Source: Clostridiaceae bacterium
GTDB taxonomy: Bacteria; Bacillota; Clostridia; Acetivibrionales; DUMC01
Assembly (NCBI GenBank): GCA_012840075.1
Contig: DUMC01000161.1
Span: forward strand, 1-32,351
Reading direction: 5' to 3'
DNA: 32,351 bases
The translations under genes and the position numbers were made by a program. The notes under the pieces are model-generated. The model was given only the letters and a program-made list of their open reading frames with translations, did no database searches and was not told the DNA's origin. Of this stretch, positions 5,041-17,002 are shown in pieces (position 1 is the first letter of the stretch; each line of letters begins with the position of its first letter).

Positions 5041-6553
5041 ATGCGTAATTTAAAAAGAATCATGTGCTTATTCTTAGTAGTAGCATTATGTGCAATGATC
5101 TTGGTTGCTTGCCAGGGAGGGGTAAGTAAGAAGACCGACGCAGATAATACCGCAGCAACGGGCTCACCGACGAAAGAATCAAAACCTGTATTGAAGTACT
5201 TGGGCAGAGATGCAACATTTGACTTGGCCAGCAGTCCCATAATCCCAATCATTGAAGAGTTTACAGGCTACAAGGTTGAATATGAAGCTCTGCCGGCAGG
5301 AGAAGAAGGGACAACTAAGCTGATGATGTTAATAAGCTCGGGGACTTCATATGATATCATCAATTCCAACACAAACCATTTCGATAGGTTGCTGGCTGCA
5401 AAAGCATTGTTACCAGTGGATGATATGATTAAGAACGCGCCGAACTTATTAAAGTGCGTGCCGCTGGATAGTACAAGCTGGTTGAGGGTAAAGGCAGAAG
5501 ACGGGAAAGCCTACGGGATACCTCAGCTGCATCCTGTTGACAGACCTGTTAATACGATTGCCGTAAGGCAGGATATACTCAATGAACTAGGCATTAATAT
5601 GCCGGATACACCGGAAGAGTTTTATGATGCACTGAAAACTATACAGGAAAAGAAGCCTGAAATGATCCCCTATAGCACCGGAACCGACTTTCTCTTCTCC
5701 TCCACTCGAGAGCGGGTTCAACGTTTACAAGGATTGGTATGAAGAAGGTGGAAAACTTATTCCCAACCAGTTGCGCTCTGAATACAAGGAATACATTACT
5801 TTCATGCGTCAGCTGTATGCAGAAGGTCTTATGGACCAAGAATTTCCGGCTAATGATGCGGCCACCAGGCTGCAAAAGTTTACTTCAGGAAAAGCGGCCA
5901 TGATCTTTTTTGGATGCTGGGAAGGTCCAGGGTTTTATAGCGCTCTTCAAGAGAACATACCCTCAGCCGAAGTTTCATATGTTCCTTTCCTCAAAGATAA
6001 AAACGGAAACAGGGGTGCCATGGCGACAGGTGGCCTTGAAAAAGTCTGTATGATTCCCAAGACAGCTGCTCATCCGGAGGATGCTATTGCCTGGATTGAT
6101 GCTTTCATGGCAAACTTCAAGGATATTTATATTGGACCTGAAGGAGAACACCACAAGGTAGAGAATGGAAAATATGTTCCCATCATGCCGGCATTTTCGG
6201 TTCATGACACCGTTTGGTGGTTCATGCCAGCCGTAGATGAAGCTAATGTATTCGATTGGTGGCAGGCCCGTGTACGCAAAAACGCTGAAGTAGAGCGGGC
6301 TTACATGGATACATTTGCTCTCAGACATGAAGGTGTGAATGCAGTTATACCTACCTTTGCAATGTATCCACCAAATGAGGAGTTTATTGAACTTGGTAAT
6401 ATTTTGGGCCAATACTGGAAAGATGAAATGGTTAAGATAGTAACCTGGGCAATTTCCTTGGAGGAATATGATAAGATAGTTGAGAAGTGGAAAGCTGATG
6501 GTGGAACCAGATATGTAGAACTTGCAAACCAGATATGGGAGAAATATAAGTAA
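5041..6553 (+). pseudogene. Frameshifted LplA-type lipoprotein solute-binding protein
   Basis: Extracellular solute-binding lipoprotein of the sugar importer, read in two frames. The first part (5041-5742) starts after AAGGAGG and has a lipoprotein signal peptide with the lipobox LVAC, Cys24 being the lipid anchor. It continues as a normal binding protein to about GTDFLFSS. The frame then has to shift by +1 near 5690-5702, in a CT-rich run, to continue as PPLESGFNVYKDWYEEGG and on through EYITFMRQLYAEGLMD to the stop at 6553. Both halves together make about 504 residues, close to a full-length protein, so almost nothing is missing. Either this is a recent one-base indel that inactivates the transporter, or a sequencing error. 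The TTG at 5771 is unlikely to be a real start. Confidence 0.85.
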
Positions 6554-6766: not shown

Positions 6767-8608
6767 ATGGGTAAAAGAGTTTTATGGATGTTAATATCTA
6801 GTATGTCAAATTCCGATATCCACCTTGTAATACCTACTATTGCATGGATGGCCAAGGAAGCAAAGGTGGAATTTGAATGTTACCTGGAAGCATCCAGGAA
6901 TGGAAAGCTATTTGCTGCCAGTGGGAGTACAATATTGGGAGGATATCATTTCGAACAGTTTAATTATCTAAATTCGGTATTTGAAGTAAAATATATCCTT
7001 TTCGGAGAGACATCGGTGTTTAGATCGACATTAAACATATTGAGTTCAGAAATCCTTATTGAAACAAGTTCATTACAGGAACTGTATGAAACATTGCTAA
7101 AGCAATCTGGTATCGGTAAACCCGGTGGAATATTGATCGCTCCCCCACTCGGAGAGATGTCTATTGCCTCTGTAACCGGCACCCGGGTGCAGTTGGAGTA
7201 TCTGGAAATAGGACCATATTTATATACCGAGATTTACTTTAGAAGAGCATTGGCCTTCCCTGTATCCCTTTGGGAAGTAGCGGAAAAATATTTTGAACGA
7301 TACAAGCAATCTAAAAAGTACTATATTTATTTATCGTGTAAGGAAAAGAAAAAAGCTAGTCGTTACTTGGAGGATGCAACCGAGATTGATAGCATGAGTG
7401 AAAACGATACCTATTCCACTGTCACGTTACGTATAGCTCGACGCTGGAAACATTTGGCAAAGGGTGTTGCTTTCGGAGATCCAATGGCCATACTTTCTAT
7501 ATTACCAACCCTTTGCCGCGAAGAGAGGATTGCACTTTACGGCGAATTAAAAAAGAAACCTCTTTCACAAATCAAAGTAGCTTGGTATACCGAGAGTTCC
7601 TCGGAAATAGCAGCTGAAGTTGCCGGTCTTGCGGAGGAAACCGGAAATCGGGTGATAATCGGGCGGCAAACTGGCGATGGTGATCTCTTTGAATGGTCGA
7701 AAAAAGGAATATGCATGAAAATTATTGACCCAAATAGGCCGGCTTTTCCTGTTGTAACGAGGGTTAAACACCCATGGACTAATAGGTATAATGCATACGA
7801 GGATGAGGTTGATGACGAGACCCTTTTACAATATGCCAAGAGTGGGAAAATACTTGCAAGCCTTATATGGCATTCGGGTGAAATGGCCCATAACGAGGCC
7901 ATGCTTAATTTAATAGACCTTGTATCTTTTACAGGGATAAAAATGGGTATAGGAGTTCATGCAGCCCGTTATGAAACCTGCCCTCAGTTGTGGGAGTTAA
8001 TTAATGTACCAAAAGAAAAAGGCGGAGTAAAAGGCTATATTGAACCTATTATCCATTCCGGCGGTATGGGTGTAATGGCAGAGATTAATTGTCCTGTTAA
8101 CTTGCTGAAGCAGCATTGTGAAATTGCTCTGGCAAGAATCCGGCAAATAGCGGGAGATGAAGCTGTCCCCAGGGGTTACTATGCCTTTGCCGATACTGAC
8201 TTGGATACCATGATGACAATAAAATCTGAAATATATGAAGCCATAGAAGAAAGTGGACTTGAATATTTTATATCCTCTGTAAGACCCGGACGAAACAGGA
8301 TCATATACTTGACAGATAAGATGATAGTCGTCAACCAGTCCTCGAGGACCCACTGCAGTGGATCGCCTTTTGTCAGGATTACAACCATCGAGGATATAAA
8401 AGAAAGCGGTTTTCAATCAAGACCTGGCTGGTTCATTGGCACTCTTGATTCTCCGGTTATCTCATTTAACCCGTATATATGGCGTTATGGTTCTCAGTTC
8501 ATGCAGATAGTGGATTGGATGCTCAACGCAAAAGACGTGGTGAATGTAACACCTCATACCATAGCCAGGTATGCTAGAATTCTAAAACAAGAAGGCTTCT
8601 TGGCTTGA
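6767..8608 (+). CDS. Unknown 613-residue protein linked to the sugar transporter
   Basis: I do not recognise this family. It starts at ATG after ACAGGAGAGAG and has no signal peptide or membrane segment, so it is probably cytoplasmic. Two parts can be seen. Residues 1-270 are an alpha/beta region (start MGKRVLWMLIS, GKPGGILIAPPLGEMS near 125-139). Residues about 270-613 are richer in motifs: SLIWHSGEMAHNEAM, MGIGVHAARYE, IIHSGGMGVMAEIN and FADTDLDTM, with several His and acidic residues after beta-strand-like stretches, as in a TIM-barrel or deacetylase-like hydrolase. That reading is speculative. It follows the ABC transporter by about 210 bases in the same direction and is closed by a strong terminator, so a role in processing the imported sugar, or in responding to it, is inferred from context only. 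Confidence 0.8.
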   Translation: MGKRVLWMLISSMSNSDIHLVIPTIAWMAKEAKVEFECYLEASRNGKLFAASGSTILGGYHFEQFNYLNSVFEVKYILFGETSVFRSTLNILSSEILIETSSLQELYETLLKQSGIGKPGGILIAPPLGEMSIASVTGTRVQLEYLEIGPYLYTEIYFRRALAFPVSLWEVAEKYFERYKQSKKYYIYLSCKEKKKASRYLEDATEIDSMSENDTYSTVTLRIARRWKHLAKGVAFGDPMAILSILPTLCREERIALYGELKKKPLSQIKVAWYTESSSEIAAEVAGLAEETGNRVIIGRQTGDGDLFEWSKKGICMKIIDPNRPAFPVVTRVKHPWTNRYNAYEDEVDDETLLQYAKSGKILASLIWHSGEMAHNEAMLNLIDLVSFTGIKMGIGVHAARYETCPQLWELINVPKEKGGVKGYIEPIIHSGGMGVMAEINCPVNLLKQHCEIALARIRQIAGDEAVPRGYYAFADTDLDTMMTIKSEIYEAIEESGLEYFISSVRPGRNRIIYLTDKMIVVNQSSRTHCSGSPFVRITTIEDIKESGFQSRPGWFIGTLDSPVISFNPYIWRYGSQFMQIVDWMLNAKDVVNVTPHTIARYARILKQEGFLA

Positions 8609-8798: not shown

Positions 8799-8846
8799 AA
8801 AAAACCTTTGTAATCCTTGAAAGAAGCGGACTACAAAGGTTTTTTT
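8799..8846 (+). terminator. Rho-independent terminator, likely bidirectional
   Basis: AAAAAACCTTTGTA...CC pairs with GG...TACAAAGGTTTTTT around a loop of about 11 bases, with A-run and T-run flanks on either side, so it can work on both strands. It separates the sugar locus from the helicase operon. Confidence 0.85.
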
Positions 8847-9029: not shown

Positions 9030-9057
9030 TTGTCCTTTTGAGTATGTATGCTATAAT
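9030..9057 (+). promoter_or_regulatory. Extended -10 promoter of the three-gene helicase operon
   Basis: TTGTCC (9030-9035), a 16-base spacer and TATAAT (9052-9057) preceded by TGC, giving an extended -10 element. The small hairpin TGCTGGCTGCAGCA at 9014-9027 abuts the -35 and could be an operator. The leader to the ATG at 9114 is about 50 bases and carries AAGGAG at 9102-9107. Confidence 0.65.
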
Positions 9058-9113
9058 TATAATATGTCTGATAATATTGTGAGTTTGTTGCCTTATGCTT
9101 TAAGGAGTATGCT

Positions 9114-10316
9114 ATGCAGCTAGGGTGGATAGATTTTTCAAAAAGAGAAAGAGAAAAAGTACTTGATGTTATAAATCTTCTTACCGAAGAAGGTGCTATT
9201 GATGAACTGGGCATAGGTGTTATTAGGGATAGTTTTGCCAACTTGTTCTTTCCCGGCACATCAACTGTCCAGACCCGGGCAAAATACTTTTTAATTGTCT
9301 CTTATATTTTAAAGGAAGCTGAAGAAGGCAAATACGGAGATCATCCTGAAGCAATTTTTAGAAGAATAGATGAAGAAGAACGAAAATGTGCTCTTAAGTT
9401 GCTTGAAAATGACAGAGATGGTGTTATCGGCGCGAGAGTTCTTCCTGATAAATGGGTGATCAGAACGCCTTCTAATATATATTGGAATGGCATTAAAACG
9501 TTGAAAATCTTCACGGATGAAAATTTGTCGATCCAAGAGTATATCAGACTGGTTTGTTCTCTCAGAAAACAAAAGAATGCCATAAATTTGGGCAACCGAA
9601 ATGATGATGCAGAGAATGAGGGCTCAAGTGATGATAAGGATGCAGCAGAAACTGATAAGTTTTATTTTTGGAATTTGCCGAGTACATACAAAACGAACTG
9701 GAGAGAAAACCTACGGATACAGCTTTTGCCTGAAGAAGCAGCTTTTTTAAAGCAGCAGATTATAAAGGAAGTTTCTGACACTTTGTTTGCATTTTTGCTG
9801 AAGAACCATATTGATGTAAACAAATACGATACATTTGAGGCACTTTATGAAGACCTGAAATATGAAGTGTCTGAAAGCTTAAGGAAAGATATGCTGATGG
9901 CATGTGAATTTAATAACTTTATTCAGATTGCTTTTACTCAGTACAACCTGATTATATCGGCTGGGAAAAATTCGAGAGCATTGGATAAATGGGAGAAAAT
10001 AAGGGTTAACATTGATAAGTATGCCATGATAGATTTAGACGCGATTTTTTTCCGGCTTAGAATTGTCAACCCTGCTCTGAAAGCTTTTTTAAAAGGCATA
10101 AGAACTGCTTCGCTAGAAAAAGACATCGACAGACTAAGACAGTTGATAATAAATAGGGAAAATAATCTGAAAAGCAAAGCCCGTGCAAAGGTAAATCGTG
10201 TAGGGGAATTTGACGAAAATGCATGGATTGGACTGGAATACCTGGATTACCGGTTCAGCAACGCTAAGCGAATTATTAACGATATTTATGAAGGAGAGCA
10301 GATAACTGATGTTTAG
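9114..10316 (+). CDS. DUF6361-like protein, first gene of helicase operon
   Basis: The N-terminus (GWIDFSKREREKVL, then LLTEEGAIDELGIGVIRDSF and FFPGTSTVQTRAKYFLIV) matches my memory of the DUF6361 family; no biochemical activity is known to me. The 400-residue protein is soluble, without signal peptide. Residues 162-184 are a low-complexity acidic linker (NDDAENEGSSDDKDAAE) dividing an N-terminal part from a mostly alpha-helical C-terminal part. The start is fixed by AAGGAG seven bases before ATG. The last codons overlap the start of the PLD gene by 8 bases, so the two are translationally coupled. The fixed grouping with a PLD protein and a helicase suggests a sensor or adaptor role in a DNA-directed defence complex; that is inference. 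Confidence 0.85.
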   Translation: MQLGWIDFSKREREKVLDVINLLTEEGAIDELGIGVIRDSFANLFFPGTSTVQTRAKYFLIVSYILKEAEEGKYGDHPEAIFRRIDEEERKCALKLLENDRDGVIGARVLPDKWVIRTPSNIYWNGIKTLKIFTDENLSIQEYIRLVCSLRKQKNAINLGNRNDDAENEGSSDDKDAAETDKFYFWNLPSTYKTNWRENLRIQLLPEEAAFLKQQIIKEVSDTLFAFLLKNHIDVNKYDTFEALYEDLKYEVSESLRKDMLMACEFNNFIQIAFTQYNLIISAGKNSRALDKWEKIRVNIDKYAMIDLDAIFFRLRIVNPALKAFLKGIRTASLEKDIDRLRQLIINRENNLKSKARAKVNRVGEFDENAWIGLEYLDYRFSNAKRIINDIYEGEQITDV

Positions 10317-12120
10317 GACAGATAAAGACAGACTTTATTATGGAAACATTCTAATGCCGCCTGACGGATATAAACTGGAAAAAGCAGTAGGCACGACTTA
10401 TTCACTAGATTTGAAGGCGCTGACTGCAGTGATTATAGCACTGGGCTTGCATGAAGATACAGATTCTATACTTGAAAATGATCCTGTTTACTTGTTAAAT
10501 GCAATACAAAATACAGCTGATAAAATTATACTGTTTTGTGAGTCAGGTCAGATAAAACTGCCTCAGTCACCCAGTATTTTATATATTTTGTTGGAGAAAA
10601 TGGTGGTTCCGGTTGCTTTGCCAAAAAAGACTGAGAATGGCAGATATCCTTCATTTCACCCTAAAACATGGCTGTTGCAGTATTGCAACGATAAAAATGA
10701 GCGAAAGTACAGGTTTGTTGTGCTAAGTCGTAATCTTACATTTGACAGGAGCTGGGATGTAAGTATTGTACTTGACGGGAATGAACAAAATAAAAATTCT
10801 GAAAAGACACAGCCGATAAAGGATTTTTTAGAGTTTTTGATAAAACAGATAAGCGGCGATTTTTTATGGGATAATAACAAAAAGAATCTTATTGACAAAC
10901 TGTGCAGTGAGCTAGAAAATGTCTATTTTGAAATAAATATGAAAGAGTTTTATGACTTAAAAATAATGCCTATCGGAATAGGCAAAAAACAGTATGATAT
11001 AATTAATGATGAGCTGTTTTATGATACCTTTCATGAACTGGTGATAATGTCACCTTTTATATCTGCTGATGTAATAGAAAGCTTTAATAAGGACAATAGA
11101 GGATTGACGGGATGTCAACGCACTTTAATAACAAGAAAAACCGAAATCAGAAAATTGAAAAAAGAGCAGGTAGCCAATTTTAATATATATACATTGAAAG
11201 ATATAATAATTGATGGCGAGAATGCTTTATCGGATGAAGATGTTGAAAAGCAAAAGCAGGATATCCATGCAAAAATTTTTTTGAAGAGAAAGTATGCTAA
11301 CACAGATCTGTACATCGGGTCAATGAATGCCACATATTCTGCAGTTTATGAAAATGTGGAGATGATGATAAAATTATCAGCCAAAAACAGGTATCTGAAT
11401 GGTTCCATATTTTTAAAAGAAATATTCTGTGGAGATACCGATTCACCTGAAAACCCCTTTGAAAAAACAGAAATAAGCGAAGAAGAAATAAGTTCAGAAG
11501 GAGAGCAAAAAGACCTGAAAGAACAAGCGGTTAAACAAATATGTAGGATGAAAAAACATGCAAAGGTTATAAGTAATTATAACAGATATAATTTGATTAT
11601 AAATTTTGAAGATGTATTAAACCTGCCGGTTGAGATTATCATATCACCACTCAGAAGCAGAAAGGAAGCTCCTCTTTCCTTGGAAATCAGGATTTCTGAT
11701 TTGGATATACTGCAGCTTTCAGAATTCTATTCTATAAAAGTATCAGATCAGAAGGGAAAAATTGAACGTATTATTATGATTCCAACTGAAGGGATTCCTG
11801 ATAACCGTGAAAGTGCAATAGTAAATAGTATAATAAAAGACAGAAAATCTTTTTTGGAATATATTGCATTTGTGCTTGGTGATGATTATATCCTTTCGTT
11901 TATGCAAAAAAAGATGGTAAATGAAAGCGGCTTCTTCCGAAGAAGTGAGGATATCGGTCCTGCAATATATGAGAAAATGCTGAGGACTTCCTTAAATGAT
12001 CCAGAACGGTTTAACAATATTGAATATGTAATGAAACATATTACAAATGATGAAATTATACCCGATGAATTTCGCAAAATGTATGAAGTGTTTAAAAAAT
12101 CATTAAGAATTGATAATTGA
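10309..12120 (+). CDS. Phospholipase-D-like nuclease candidate
   Basis: Soluble 603-residue protein with two HKD-like half-sites. The first is His117-Pro-Lys119 followed by SRNLT at 140-144; the second is His320-Ala-Lys322 followed by GSMNAT at 337-342 and NVEMM at 349. Two HxK...(G)SxN sites are the hallmark of the PLD superfamily, which uses a covalent phospho-histidine and, in helicase-linked members such as DISARM DrmC, is thought to cut nucleic acid. The canonical downstream Asp is not obvious, so catalysis needs testing. An acidic stretch (EISEEEISSEGEQ) lies near residue 390; the C-terminal 200 residues are unassigned. The ATG overlaps the upstream gene by 8 bases and has GGAGAG upstream. 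It is the middle gene of the operon. Confidence 0.85.
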   Translation: MFRTDKDRLYYGNILMPPDGYKLEKAVGTTYSLDLKALTAVIIALGLHEDTDSILENDPVYLLNAIQNTADKIILFCESGQIKLPQSPSILYILLEKMVVPVALPKKTENGRYPSFHPKTWLLQYCNDKNERKYRFVVLSRNLTFDRSWDVSIVLDGNEQNKNSEKTQPIKDFLEFLIKQISGDFLWDNNKKNLIDKLCSELENVYFEINMKEFYDLKIMPIGIGKKQYDIINDELFYDTFHELVIMSPFISADVIESFNKDNRGLTGCQRTLITRKTEIRKLKKEQVANFNIYTLKDIIIDGENALSDEDVEKQKQDIHAKIFLKRKYANTDLYIGSMNATYSAVYENVEMMIKLSAKNRYLNGSIFLKEIFCGDTDSPENPFEKTEISEEEISSEGEQKDLKEQAVKQICRMKKHAKVISNYNRYNLIINFEDVLNLPVEIIISPLRSRKEAPLSLEIRISDLDILQLSEFYSIKVSDQKGKIERIIMIPTEGIPDNRESAIVNSIIKDRKSFLEYIAFVLGDDYILSFMQKKMVNESGFFRRSEDIGPAIYEKMLRTSLNDPERFNNIEYVMKHITNDEIIPDEFRKMYEVFKKSLRIDN

Positions 12121-12132
12121 CAATTTGATAAT

Positions 12133-12184
12133 TGATATTTTTATAATTGCTAATTAATAGCTGATATTTTTATAATTGCTAATT
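12133..12184 (+). repeat. Two 23-bp direct repeats before the helicase gene
   Basis: TGATATTTTTATAATTGCTA plus ATT occurs at 12133-12155 and again, identically, at 12162-12184, six bases apart. A shorter related piece (TTGATAATTGA) precedes them around 12111-12132. They fill the 73-base gap between the PLD stop and the helicase start and leave only a short GGAACGGGA as ribosome site. Copy number could tune helicase translation or act as a protein-binding site. Confidence 0.8.
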
Positions 12185-12193
12185 GGAACGGGA

Positions 12194-15100
12194 ATGATTT
12201 TTATGGATATTGTAGATTTAAGAAAGATAGAAGAAAGTACAGTTGAGATACTAAAAGATTTCCAGAAAGAAACTGTTAACCGCATTGAATATTTGTTTCG
12301 CAGCGGTCAGAAACGTGTGCTGGTAGCTGATGAGGTTGGCTTGGGCAAAACTCTGATAGCCAGAGGTGCTATCATAAAAACTGCAATAATGAAGTTTGAG
12401 CATGGGACCGAATTATTCAAGGTTGTATATGTATGTTCCAATCAGAATATCGCCAGCCAGAATATCAGAAAGCTTAAAGTGTATTCAGGCGCAAGCATTG
12501 GCAATATATCCGAGACCAGGCTGTCTATGCAACATCTGAATATAGTAGAGCAAGAATTAGATGAAACCGTACGTAAAGGATATATTCAGCTTATACCGCT
12601 CACCCCTGATACTTCTTTCAGAATGACAAGCGGCGGAGGAAGTGTCAGGGAAAGGGCTTTAATGTATTCAATACTGATCAGGATCGATTTTATTAGAAAA
12701 TACAGCAATGAACTGGAGAAGCTGCTTATACACGGGGCATTCAAGGTATGGAATTGGCATAAGAATCATTACATGGATAGAGTCAGCAAATGTGAAATAA
12801 AATCAGGAGGAAAATATCCTTCTGAAATATTGCGAAGGATACTAAATTATTTTTCAGAAGAAAAAGAACTTAAGAACGTGCTTATATCCCATTTGATCAG
12901 TATCAGGGAGAATACTGCAAAGAAATATTCTGATGGATTTGTAATTAATAAACTCAGAGTCATGTTTGCAAGGATTAGTATTTCGATGTTGAACCCTGAT
13001 CTGGTAATAATGGATGAATTCCAAAGATTTAAATATTTAATTTCAGCGGATGAGGAAAGCGAAACTGGCATATTGGCAAGGCGGTTTCTGAACAATGACA
13101 ACACTTATGTATTGCTTTTGTCTGCAACTCCATACAAACTTTATTCCACTTTGGATGAAATAAATGAAACACTGATTGATGAGCATTACAATGAGTTCTT
13201 CGAAGTTATAAAATTCTTGTTTAATTATGAAAAGAAATTTTTTGAGTTCAGGGGAATTTGGTCAAATTATTCAATAATGCTTCGCGAATTAAAAGAAGGG
13301 AATACAGCTGTTATTAATGTGAAAAATCAAGCAGAAGATGCAATATATCAGGGTGTTTGCAGAACTGAGAGGATTTTAGAAGCAGATTCAGCTGACTATA
13401 CGGATGATTCATCAGTGAAAGAGAGTCTGAAAATCAGTGAATATGACATTATGTCTTACCTGGAAGCAGGAAAGCTTTTAAAGAATATCGGAGCGAATTT
13501 CACACTACCTGTTGATTATGTAAAGAGTTGTCCTTATCTGCTCTCCTTCATGAAAAATTATAAATTGAAAGAAAAAATTGAGAAATATTTTTCAAATCAT
13601 CCTGAAGAAATAACACTTGCAAGAAGTAAGCTGCTTTGGCTAAATGAGTCACTTATAGACAAGTATGAAGAATTCTCAAAAGCAAATGCAAGGTTGGAGT
13701 GTCTGTTGAATCATTCATTTTACAATAAATCAGAATTATATCTCTGGATACCGCCCTCAAGACCTTATTATGAATTTCAGGGAGTATACAGAGACAGCGA
13801 AGGTTTTTCAAAGATACTCGTTTTTTCATCATGGGAAATGGTACCGCGCATGATAGCCACTCTCGTTTCTTATGAAGCGGAGCGAAGAACCATTGGGCGG
13901 CTTTCCAGGCAGTCAAAATACGTAGATAGAAAGAATGCACATTATTTCGCTGATGCATCGAAAAGATTTCCTGTTCCAAGACTTCGTTTTAATGTGCATA
14001 ATGGAGAGGCCAGAGGCATGAATCTTTTCAGTCTTCTTTATCCTTCAAGGTTTCTTGCTGATTTGTACAATCCTATTCAATGCATGAATAAAGGAATGAC
14101 GCTAAAAGACATTGAAAAAAAGCTAAAAAATGATATTGAATTAGCACTAGGATCATTGGTGAAGTACCAGGGAACGTCCGGCCGTAAAGATGACAGATGG
14201 TATTACCTAGCTCCTATGCTTTTGGATGGGTCTGAATTTGTTAGTGAATGGCTAAAAGCCCTTAAAAATGAATTTGACAGGGATCTGGATGATAGCGATA
14301 ATGATAGCGATGATAAAGGAAACAGTGGCAAAATGCTTCATTTGAAACAACTTGAGGAGATGTATAAAGACAGGGAAAACCTCTTGTTAGGCGAAAAACC
14401 TTATGATTTAATACCTACGTTAATAAACATGGCAATAGCATCTCCGGCAGTCTGCATTTACCGGGCAAGTGGTGGAAATGTGCCGATGGCAACAACTCTG
14501 GCTAATATATTCTTGAAACGATTTAACACGACTGAGGCAACAGCAATAGTTGATCTTGCATATGGCCGGTATAAGGACGATTTGTCTCATTGGAAAAATG
14601 TTCTCAGATATTGCAAAGATGGCAATTTTCAGGCAATGATAGATGAATATTATCATTTGATTTCTGAATCAGTAGGTTTTGCGGATAAAACAGACAAAGA
14701 CAGAGTTATTTTTGAAACAATGGCTGACGCTCTTCAAATACACAGTGTTTCTTATAATGTGGATACATATAAAAGCTTTAAGGCAAGGATAAATGGAAAG
14801 AAGAAAAAGAATATAAGACTCAGGTCGCATTTTGCTGTAGGGTTTACTCAAGGTGAGGGAGAGGATGAAAAAAGGCTTTACCGTAAAGAAAGCATAAGAA
14901 ATGCTTTTAATTCACCATTGCGACCGTTTGTTCTTGCCACTACATCAATCGGACAAGAAGGACTGGATTTCCATAACTATTGCAGAAAAATCATGCACTG
15001 GAATCTTCCGGCTAATCCTGTTGACATAGAACAGCGTGAAGGGAGGATCAACAGGTTTAAATGTCTTGCAATAAGGCAGAGTATAGCTGAAGAATACGGA

Positions 15101-15451
15101 AAAATAAATTTTAAAAAAGATGTATGGAAAGAAATGTTTGGCGAGGCGGCAAGACATGCGAAAAAAGAAGGGAAGTCAGACCTGGTTCCTTTTTGGTGCC
15201 TTGGAGGTGATTATAAATACAAAATTGAAAGAATAGTGCCCATGTATCCCATGAGCATGGATGTGTTAAAATATGAAAGGCTGATAAAAATACTTTCTTT
15301 ATACAGGATTACGCTAGGACAAGCAAGGCAAGAAGAATTGCTGGAATATCTTTTTAATACATTTGACGATTGCAGCAGGCTGAGAGAGTTATTCATGGAT
15401 TTAAGTCCATACAGTAGACGGGTAAAAGCAAACAACGTTGCAAAAAGGTAG
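12194..15451 (+). CDS. Large SF2/SNF2-like helicase of candidate defence operon
   Basis: ATP-dependent nucleic acid motor or translocase of 1085 residues. In order: a Q-motif-like LKDFQKETV near 20-28; Walker A ADEVGLGKT (45-53); Walker B variant MDEFQRF with Asp274 (DEFQ rather than DEAD/DEAH); motif III LLLSATPYK near 308-316; a long insertion of several hundred residues; motif IV-like LVFSSWEMV; a Ser/Asp-rich linker DLDDSDNDSDDKGNSG near residue 698; motif V ATTSIGQEGLDFHNYC; motif VI QREGRINR from 947. The arrangement and DEVGLGKT resemble SNF2-like helicases in bacterial defence systems. No nuclease or HKD motif was found in it, so the PLD neighbour may supply cleavage. The ATG at 12194 or 12203 is preferred over a TTG at 12176 lying inside the direct repeat. 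The gene is last in the operon. Confidence 0.88.
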   Translation: MIFMDIVDLRKIEESTVEILKDFQKETVNRIEYLFRSGQKRVLVADEVGLGKTLIARGAIIKTAIMKFEHGTELFKVVYVCSNQNIASQNIRKLKVYSGASIGNISETRLSMQHLNIVEQELDETVRKGYIQLIPLTPDTSFRMTSGGGSVRERALMYSILIRIDFIRKYSNELEKLLIHGAFKVWNWHKNHYMDRVSKCEIKSGGKYPSEILRRILNYFSEEKELKNVLISHLISIRENTAKKYSDGFVINKLRVMFARISISMLNPDLVIMDEFQRFKYLISADEESETGILARRFLNNDNTYVLLLSATPYKLYSTLDEINETLIDEHYNEFFEVIKFLFNYEKKFFEFRGIWSNYSIMLRELKEGNTAVINVKNQAEDAIYQGVCRTERILEADSADYTDDSSVKESLKISEYDIMSYLEAGKLLKNIGANFTLPVDYVKSCPYLLSFMKNYKLKEKIEKYFSNHPEEITLARSKLLWLNESLIDKYEEFSKANARLECLLNHSFYNKSELYLWIPPSRPYYEFQGVYRDSEGFSKILVFSSWEMVPRMIATLVSYEAERRTIGRLSRQSKYVDRKNAHYFADASKRFPVPRLRFNVHNGEARGMNLFSLLYPSRFLADLYNPIQCMNKGMTLKDIEKKLKNDIELALGSLVKYQGTSGRKDDRWYYLAPMLLDGSEFVSEWLKALKNEFDRDLDDSDNDSDDKGNSGKMLHLKQLEEMYKDRENLLLGEKPYDLIPTLINMAIASPAVCIYRASGGNVPMATTLANIFLKRFNTTEATAIVDLAYGRYKDDLSHWKNVLRYCKDGNFQAMIDEYYHLISESVGFADKTDKDRVIFETMADALQIHSVSYNVDTYKSFKARINGKKKKNIRLRSHFAVGFTQGEGEDEKRLYRKESIRNAFNSPLRPFVLATTSIGQEGLDFHNYCRKIMHWNLPANPVDIEQREGRINRFKCLAIRQSIAEEYGKINFKKDVWKEMFGEAARHAKKEGKSDLVPFWCLGGDYKYKIERIVPMYPMSMDVLKYERLIKILSLYRITLGQARQEELLEYLFNTFDDCSRLRELFMDLSPYSRRVKANNVAKR

Positions 15452-16700: not shown

Positions 16701-16790
16701 AATACTTCATATACCTTCACCGGCTTAGCTAATGGAGTAGAATACACCTTCTATGTGAGAGTGGTAAACAGAATAGTAGAAGGAGAATGA
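16701..16790 (+). pseudogene. Fibronectin type III domain fragment
   Basis: Thirty codons read [12 protein letters not shown], then [17 protein letters not shown] and a stop. This is the C-terminal half of a fibronectin type III domain (the Y-x-F-x-G-L-x-x-G-x-x-Y-x-F-x-V-R-x-V-N signature), a module common in secreted clostridial glycan-degrading enzymes. The rest of the gene is missing, so an extracellular enzyme or adhesin was lost here. No start codon or ribosome site belongs to it. Confidence 0.6.
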
Positions 16791-17002
16791 ATCTTGATGA
16801 AGGCTACGCCGGTAGCTATACTATAGATCACCTATACGGTAACGATAGTGGTCATATAAACAAAGAAGTAAAAGTATTATCCATAAGGGAATGGGTATGT
16901 GAGAAATGCAATACAATTCATCAGAGGGATGAAAATTCTGCGAAAAGTATATTAAAACAAGGATTAAGGGAGTTAAAATATAACAACATAAATACAGAAT
17001 AA
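16787..17002 (+). pseudogene. TnpB (IS200/IS605 OrfB) C-terminal remnant
   Basis: From about 16858 the frame reads [17 protein letters not shown], then [21 protein letters not shown]. This is the end of the RuvC-like nuclease TnpB: the second CxxC of its zinc ribbon and the final catalytic Asp in the RDxN(A/S)AxxIL motif. The upstream two thirds of the protein, with the first two catalytic acids and the DNA-binding parts, are missing, so it cannot be active. The first 24 codons (from 16787) are not TnpB-like and overlap the fibronectin fragment. The 3' flank still has the structured right end listed next. Confidence 0.75.

What the first reader, a model, noticed from the sequence alone, without database searches (positions are those of the whole stretch)
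9030..15451. Candidate undescribed three-gene defence system: DUF6361 + PLD nuclease + SNF2-like helicase
Three overlapping or closely spaced genes share one promoter: a DUF6361-like protein, a protein with two PLD half-sites (His117/Lys119, His320/Lys322) and a 1085-residue helicase with DEVGLGKT, DEFQRF, SATP and QREGRINR motifs. Helicase plus PLD nuclease is the logic of DISARM (DrmA/DrmC) and Mokosh, but no DrmB, methylase or other known subunit is present and DUF6361 does not belong to those sets. The operon sits between a sugar locus and a transposon graveyard, as defence islands often do.
Basis: partly seen in the sequence, partly recalled or inferred. Interest (0 to 1): 0.82.

Follow-up and report, generated by a model that had tools for sequence, protein, structure and literature searches.

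The report
Known Azaca anti-phage defence operon
The three genes are an intact copy of Azaca, an anti-phage defence system that is already named and catalogued, so the find is real but ordinary, although how Azaca works is still not known.

Summary
Window 9114-15451 (+) has three intact genes (400, 603 and 1085-1091 aa). They match, nearly full length, the PADLOC profiles ZacA (E 3.9e-90), ZacB (1.2e-147) and ZacC (E 0). ZacC is in print as the helicase of Azaca, a system credited to Millman et al. 2022 (that paper is not held). In 22 of 22 examined loci that reach zacC (of 26), the order is A-B-C on one strand. Strong ZacA and strong ZacB mark the same 6 of 391 class and 10 of 398 phylum genomes (29, 95). 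Both PLD half-sites are kept in 23 of 23 aligned ZacB, and a ZacB model folds as a two-lobed PLD (Z 14.6). Likely mechanism: an ATP-driven helicase-nuclease complex attacking invading DNA, with helical ZacA as adaptor or sensor; these roles are inferred. No further defence system was recognised among 20 neighbouring ORFs scanned. New member of a known kind; low interest.

The parts
8799..8845 (+). terminator-like hairpin followed by T-run, after the upstream sugar locus
   Evidence: inverted repeat I11, arms 8799-8816 / 8828-8845, 94% complementary; sequence; not in the terminator list, whose loop limit is 8
9030..9057 (+). promoter-like site TTGTCC-16-TATAAT with TG before the second hexamer
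   Evidence: 10 of 12 consensus matches; 45 such sites found against 31.2 expected, so weak evidence
9114..10316 (+). zacA, DUF6361 protein, 400 aa
   Evidence: PADLOC PDLC03828 ZacA E 3.9e-90, residues 2-395 on 4-394 of 396; Pfam PF19888 DUF6361 E 1.1e-20; AAGGAG before the ATG
10309..12120 (+). zacB, PLD-superfamily protein with two HxK half-sites (H117/K119, H320/K322), 603 aa
   Evidence: PADLOC PDLC03829 ZacB E 1.2e-147, 1-599 on 1-581 of 586; half-sites in 23 of 23 aligned sequences; model residues 1-396 match two-lobed PLD structures
12110..12182 (+). AT-rich 29-nt direct repeats, 3 copies in register, two of them overlapping, around the zacB-zacC junction
   Evidence: role unknown, possibly none
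12194..15451 (+). zacC, SF2/SNF2-like helicase, 1085 aa from ATG 12194 (1091 from TTG 12176)
   Evidence: PADLOC PDLC03830 ZacC E 0, 1016 bits, 19-1080 on 6-1018 of 1019; motif II D-E-F-Q in 20 of 20, motif I Lys in 19 of 20 aligned sequences

Best explanation
The operon is an intact Azaca system (zacA-zacB-zacC), probably acquired by horizontal transfer. Most likely working: the three proteins form one complex. ZacC uses ATP to move on or open DNA. ZacB is a two-lobed PLD phosphodiesterase whose two HxK half-sites form one active site and cut or nick the DNA that ZacC delivers (through a phosphohistidine step without metal, as is established for PLD enzymes). ZacA, predicted mostly helical and without a recognised relative, is the adaptor or sensor that loads or licenses the other two on invading DNA. 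Shown: gene content, order, co-inheritance, intact catalytic motifs, PLD fold of the ZacB model. Inferred: the complex, DNA as substrate, the role of ZacA, the trigger, and defence by this copy. I put identity as Azaca at about 0.97 and this mechanism at about 0.55.
For: Nearly full-length ZacA/B/C profile matches. ZacA profile matched by 22 of 22 aligned relatives (partly circular, as many were found with that profile). A-B-C in order on one strand in 22 of 22 loci that reach zacC; the other 4 of the 26 loci end at a contig edge first. 15 of 15 genomes with strong ZacA have ZacB and 14 of 15 have ZacC (the exception is 82% complete and its contig ends inside zacB). Strong ZacA and ZacB mark the same 6 of 391 and the same 10 of 398 genomes (29, 95). 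Distance matrices of the three proteins agree (Mantel r 0.92-0.93, 0 of 5000 permutations as high, 19 loci). H117, K119, H320, K322, G337, S338, N340, N349, E351 in 23 of 23 ZacB; D280, E281, F282, Q283 and E952-R957 in 20 of 20 ZacC (numbering of the 1091-aa form). The ZacB model matches PLD3, PLD4, Tdp1 and phosphatidylserine synthase at Z 12-15 over residues 1-396. Profile search of the PDB finds the PLD restriction enzyme 7clg (SauUSI; E 6e-4) and a restriction endonuclease 2c1l (E 0.02); Foldseek also lists 4rct, NgoAVII (E 9.7e-4), and SauUSI (E 1.3e-3).
Against: No activity was measured. The top Foldseek rows for ZacB are polyphosphate kinases, and phosphatidylserine synthase and a poxvirus membrane phospholipase-like protein head the second list, tied with Tdp1, so the fold alone does not prove a nuclease. 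The ZacB model is of middling confidence (mean pLDDT 63; residues 298-321, which hold H320, under 50). The ZacA model is poor (mean pLDDT 55) and has no significant match. The literature seen calls the mechanism unknown (PMC10482375, PMC12926258).
Confidence: 0.75

Rival explanations
1. [quoted passage not shown]
For: Hachiman is a helicase-nuclease pair that works so (abstract and passages of PMC12278908); Azaca likewise pairs an SF2 helicase with a PLD-type phosphodiesterase.
Against: No homology of ZacA or ZacB to HamA was tested directly; Azaca has a third conserved gene; the trigger was not tested.
Confidence: 0.2
2. ZacB acts on something other than DNA (RNA, phospholipid or nucleotide), so Azaca is a membrane- or metabolite-directed killer.
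For: Foldseek's best ZacB matches are polyphosphate kinases, and phosphatidylserine synthase heads the VIA list at Z 14.6.
Against: PLD3 and Tdp1 match equally well (rows within Z 1 are tied); the profile search finds restriction nucleases; the helicase gene follows in 22 of 22 loci that reach it.
Confidence: 0.1
3. A new, undescribed three-gene system.
For: No paper in the held library contains DUF6361, and NCBIfam has no model at its cut-off for any of the three.
Against: Nearly whole-length ZacA/B/C profile matches and published use of the name Azaca with ZacC as its helicase.
Confidence: 0.01
4. A decayed, inactive copy.
For: Neighbouring DNA holds broken genes (a TnpB C-terminal remnant at 16733-16999; a solute-binding protein gene in two pieces), and the zacB-zacC gap (55 or 73 bases) is longer than in 18 of 19 relatives (the 19th, L048, had its start cut by my script).
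Against: All three frames are open, fill the profiles and keep the catalytic residues that relatives conserve.
Confidence: 0.05

Closest known systems
Azaca (ZacA, ZacB, ZacC; credited to Millman et al. 2022)
   Same: Nearly full-length matches to ZacA, ZacB and ZacC, and a PLD-like domain and an SF1/SF2 helicase as printed for Azaca. That ZacA and ZacB are its other two genes rests on the shared name series and recall.
   Different: Nothing of substance seen; a 55-73 base spacer with AT-rich repeats between zacB and zacC, where 18 of 19 relatives overlap or lie within 15 bases (starts picked by script)
DISARM (DrmA/B/C/D, methylase)
   Same: Helicase with a DrmD-like motif V-VI stretch, and a PLD partner
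   Different: Match to DrmD only over residues 903-961, 59 bits against a 610-bit cut-off; DrmC match E 0.011 over 44 residues; no DrmB or methylase profile among the 20 neighbouring ORFs scanned
Mokosh (MkoA, MkoC)
   Same: Helicase plus PLD-like domain (PMC10952713 lists both Mokosh and Azaca under PLD-like)
   Different: No Mko row among the PADLOC rows shown for the three proteins; I did not check that the library holds Mko profiles
Dpd (DpdE helicase, DpdK PLD)
   Same: SNF2-like helicase and PLD protein in one cluster
   Different: Weak, local matches only: DpdE 50.5 bits against a cut-off of 500, DpdK 14.1 against 100
Hachiman (HamA nuclease, HamB helicase)
   Same: Nuclease plus helicase logic
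   Different: Two genes; homology not tested directly here

Membership tests
Azaca | zacA (DUF6361) full length | tested here: met
   E 3.9e-90, 4-394 of 396 profile positions
Azaca | zacB with PLD-like domain | tested here: met
   E 1.2e-147, 1-581 of 586; HxK half-sites 23 of 23; PLD fold, Z 14.6, rmsd 4.1, 284 aligned; Pfam PLDc_2 only under cut-off
Azaca | zacC, SF1/SF2 helicase | tested here: met
   E 0, 1016 bits; helicase motifs conserved; ZacC is named as Azaca's helicase in PMC12278908
Azaca | the three genes adjacent, in order A-B-C, on one strand | tested here: met
   window; 22 of 22 loci that reach zacC, of 26 examined
Azaca | protects a host from phages | not testable with these tools
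   needs a plaque assay
DISARM | DrmB and a DNA methylase beside DrmA/DrmC or DrmD | tested here: not met
   no such profile at E 0.01 in the 20 neighbouring ORFs scanned; DrmD and DrmC matches far under cut-off or very short; the rest of the genome was not searched
Mokosh | Mko proteins | tested here: inconclusive
   no Mko row among the rows shown for the three proteins (for ZacC 25 of 26 rows were shown); presence of Mko profiles in the library not checked
Hachiman | HamA/HamB homology | tested here: inconclusive
   no Ham row among the PADLOC rows shown (26th ZacC row not seen); no direct comparison made

The most novel reading that the evidence does not exclude
Azaca is an add-on that works downstream of restriction: ZacC loads on ends made by restriction enzymes and ZacB destroys the fragments. 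This would explain why it is nested in type I restriction operons (M-S-[Azaca]-R on the Haliscomenobacter plasmid; HsdR directly before zacA in L051). The window copy, with no restriction gene found among the neighbours scanned, would depend on enzymes elsewhere in its genome (not searched).
Probability: 0.08. Interest if true: 0.5.

Novelty: new member of a known kind. Interest (0 to 1): 0.14.

Why it matters
As a find it adds one more intact Azaca locus, in a genome whose 59 other sampled nearest genomes have no strong ZacB. The relatives gathered here do give a small usable result: which ZacB and ZacC residues do not vary in the aligned set, and a ZacB model that is a complete two-lobed PLD. 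Together they make the unknown mechanism of Azaca directly testable by point mutants.

Tried and rejected
Undescribed system: rejected. DISARM: rejected. Dpd: weak local matches only. Mokosh and Hachiman: no row seen, not settled.

ZacA function: the AlphaFold2 model from four sequences is poor (mean pLDDT 55; blocks from residue 211 to 350 are better, 66-89) and helical throughout. Foldseek gave no match better than E 1.8, the second look no Z above 4.2, and the PDB profile search nothing better than E 1.6. So nothing is claimed beyond 'helical', and even that rests on a poor model.

Literature: searches for zacA/zacB/zacC, DUF6361, and Zac with PADLOC or Zorya gave nothing relevant. I first guessed wrongly that 'Zac' had to do with Zorya, then recalled the name Azaca; two searches bore that out for ZacC. 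The founding paper is not held, so its text was not seen; eight papers were seen as passages only.

Viral contigs: ZacA patterns gave 14 stretches, none a relative; the one ZacC match (L059, 29% identity, query residues 913-987) is a motif match only. E. coli genomes: no near match of zacA. The weak ZacB hits in 17 of 60 nearest genomes (E 8.7e-4 to 2.7e-7, short PLD stretches) were set aside as other PLD proteins. The ZacC family search in the own genome also rang weakly in other helicases, as it did in 6 of 14 control genomes. Two weak ZacA hits (G302, G306; E about 1e-4) were dropped before the count of six.

Rows dropped before the conservation counts: ZacA L046, L056; ZacB L037, L038; ZacC L009, L045 (short or broken). 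L048 counts as lacking motif I only because my script cut its start; one search shows its N-terminal part is present.

The ZacB and ZacC profiles (A2, A3) were built from loci found through ZacA or ZacC, many of them from the very genomes searched, so those calls are partly circular; could in principle under-see ZacB that travels alone, though the 1e-20 threshold is loose. The class and phylum samples share some genomes. The ZacB and ZacC trees have long branches (L057, L058, L041, L052), so only well-supported inner forks are used. The window's organism could not be named with these tools. Whether restriction genes are enriched beside Azaca was not tested against random loci.

Full report
What is there. 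Three open frames on the + strand, 9114-10316, 10309-12120 and 12176-15451, make a compact gene set. A terminator-like hairpin (8799-8845) follows the upstream genes, which are a response regulator, a sensor kinase, two ABC permeases, a solute-binding protein in two pieces and a 613-aa protein without a match. A promoter-like site lies at 9030-9057, and AAGGAG precedes the first ATG. Whether one promoter serves all three genes cannot be said: promoter-like sites are common here, and one falls just before zacC.

What it is. PADLOC profiles ZacA, ZacB and ZacC match the three proteins over nearly their whole length with E 3.9e-90, 1.2e-147 and 0. The profile rows carry no system name. Passages in print tie them to Azaca. 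A 2023 review lists Azaca among systems with a PLD-like domain, citing Millman et al. 2022 (PMC10952713, passage). The Hachiman paper lists 'Azaca (ZacC)' among defence systems with an SF1/SF2 helicase (PMC12278908, passages). That ZacA and ZacB are Azaca's other genes rests on the name series, the PLD listing and recall. Two papers list Azaca as of unknown mechanism (PMC10482375, PMC12926258, passages). Further passages list it in Pseudomonas, Halococcus and E. coli surveys (PMC10855318, PMC12629846, PMC13321033, PMC10121019). The Millman paper itself is not held.

Relatives. ZacA was sought in 391 genomes of the class (6 strong hits, 2 weak ones dropped) and 398 of the phylum (10, all strong). 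The window's own genome is in both counts, giving 15 genomes. A search with the window's ZacC gave three archaeal contigs. ZacA also matches 40 plasmid records, 19 of them Cronobacter, and one record of the phage collection. I examined the window and 25 fetched loci: 3 archaeal, 14 genome stretches, the phage-collection record and 7 of the 40 plasmid records. ZacA was found in 26 of 26 (in L056 as a fragment), ZacB in 25 of 26, ZacC in 22 of 26; the misses are all at a contig end. Order and strand are A-B-C in all 22 loci that reach zacC. In whole genomes ZacB accompanies ZacA in 15 of 15 and ZacC in 14 of 15, in some on another contig. The reverse search with ZacB gave the same genome sets. 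Of the 60 nearest genomes only the window's own has a strong ZacB. This patchy spread, with two Methanobrevibacter loci inside a well-supported ZacC clade with bacterial ones and a haloarchaeal plasmid copy grouping elsewhere, points to horizontal transfer, also between domains.

Anatomy. ZacB keeps H117, K119, H320, K322, G337, S338, N340, N349 and E351 in 23 of 23 aligned sequences; ZacC keeps motif II D-E-F-Q and the motif VI core in 20 of 20, and the motif I lysine in 19 of 20. The ZacB model (mean pLDDT 63) aligns over residues 1-396 with two-lobed PLD-superfamily proteins: phosphatidylserine synthase Z 14.6 (rmsd 4.1, 284 aligned), a poxvirus F13 protein 14.4, yeast Tdp1 14.3, PLD3 14.1. 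Rows within 1 of each other are tied, so the fold does not tell the substrate class; Foldseek's own top rows are polyphosphate kinases. By sequence profile the nearest solved structures are PLD restriction enzymes. ZacA has no recognised fold here, from a poor model.

Setting. Of 20 other ORFs of the window scanned against PADLOC at E 0.01, only the AraC-type response regulator rang: its helix-turn-helix part (PDC-S05, PDC-S23) and, weakly, its receiver part (SduA, E 0.0038). I read these as shared DNA-binding and receiver folds. Not all small ORFs were scanned. Downstream lies a TnpB C-terminal remnant (16733-16999). Several relatives do sit among restriction genes. Among the 17 loci with at least 2.8 kb on both sides (the window counted), type I or IV restriction genes were found in 4: L040, L041, L051, L052. 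L058 has an annotated Eco57I-type restriction-methylase protein, L049 a PLD-helicase defence protein, L053 and L057 an integrase directly upstream, and L054 and L057 nuclease/UvrD pairs. I scanned only ten chosen neighbours with PADLOC, so these are lower bounds, and no random control was run.

How it works. The best-supported reading is an ATP-driven helicase-nuclease complex, with ZacC as motor, ZacB as phosphodiesterase and ZacA as adaptor or sensor. Gene content, order, co-inheritance (Mantel r 0.92-0.93) and active-site conservation are shown. The complex, its substrate and its trigger are inferred.

Verdict. Real, apparently intact, already known: a new member of Azaca. Interest is low; what remains open is the mechanism of Azaca itself.

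Noticed in passing
window 16733-16999 (+), and the stretch to about 17140: Remnant of a TnpB RNA-guided nuclease: only the C-terminal end is left (NCBIfam IS200_TnpB E 3.5e-11, positions 319-360 of 360). The following stretch looks like an IS605 right end (recalled look; no Rfam match).
   Followed up: partly
window 5041-5742 and 5771-6553: A solute-binding protein gene lies in two pieces (SBP_bac_1 positions 12-148, then 192-299), so the sugar transporter locus may be broken or misassembled.
   Followed up: no
window 12110-12182: AT-rich 29-nt direct repeats at the zacB-zacC junction, with a promoter-like site at 12147-12176; in 18 of 19 relatives the two genes overlap or lie within 15 bases.
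   Followed up: partly
L051 (MT835621.1) 418-23460: A human-gut record filed as 'Bacteriophage sp.' (unverified) carries a type I restriction cassette with HsdS pieces on both strands beside an integrase (a likely invertible specificity locus), then HsdR and a complete Azaca set, flanked by an endolysin-like and a DNA-polymerase-like gene.
   Followed up: partly
L052 (Haliscomenobacter plasmid pHALHY01) 6501-20125: Azaca sits inside a type I restriction operon, between the M-S pair and R.
   Followed up: partly
L056 (Caballeronia plasmid p2) 9989-11227: zacA is annotated as three separate small proteins, so this copy is probably broken.
   Followed up: no
window 6767-8608: A 613-aa protein next to a sugar transporter with no Pfam, PADLOC or NCBIfam match at the limits used.
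   Followed up: no
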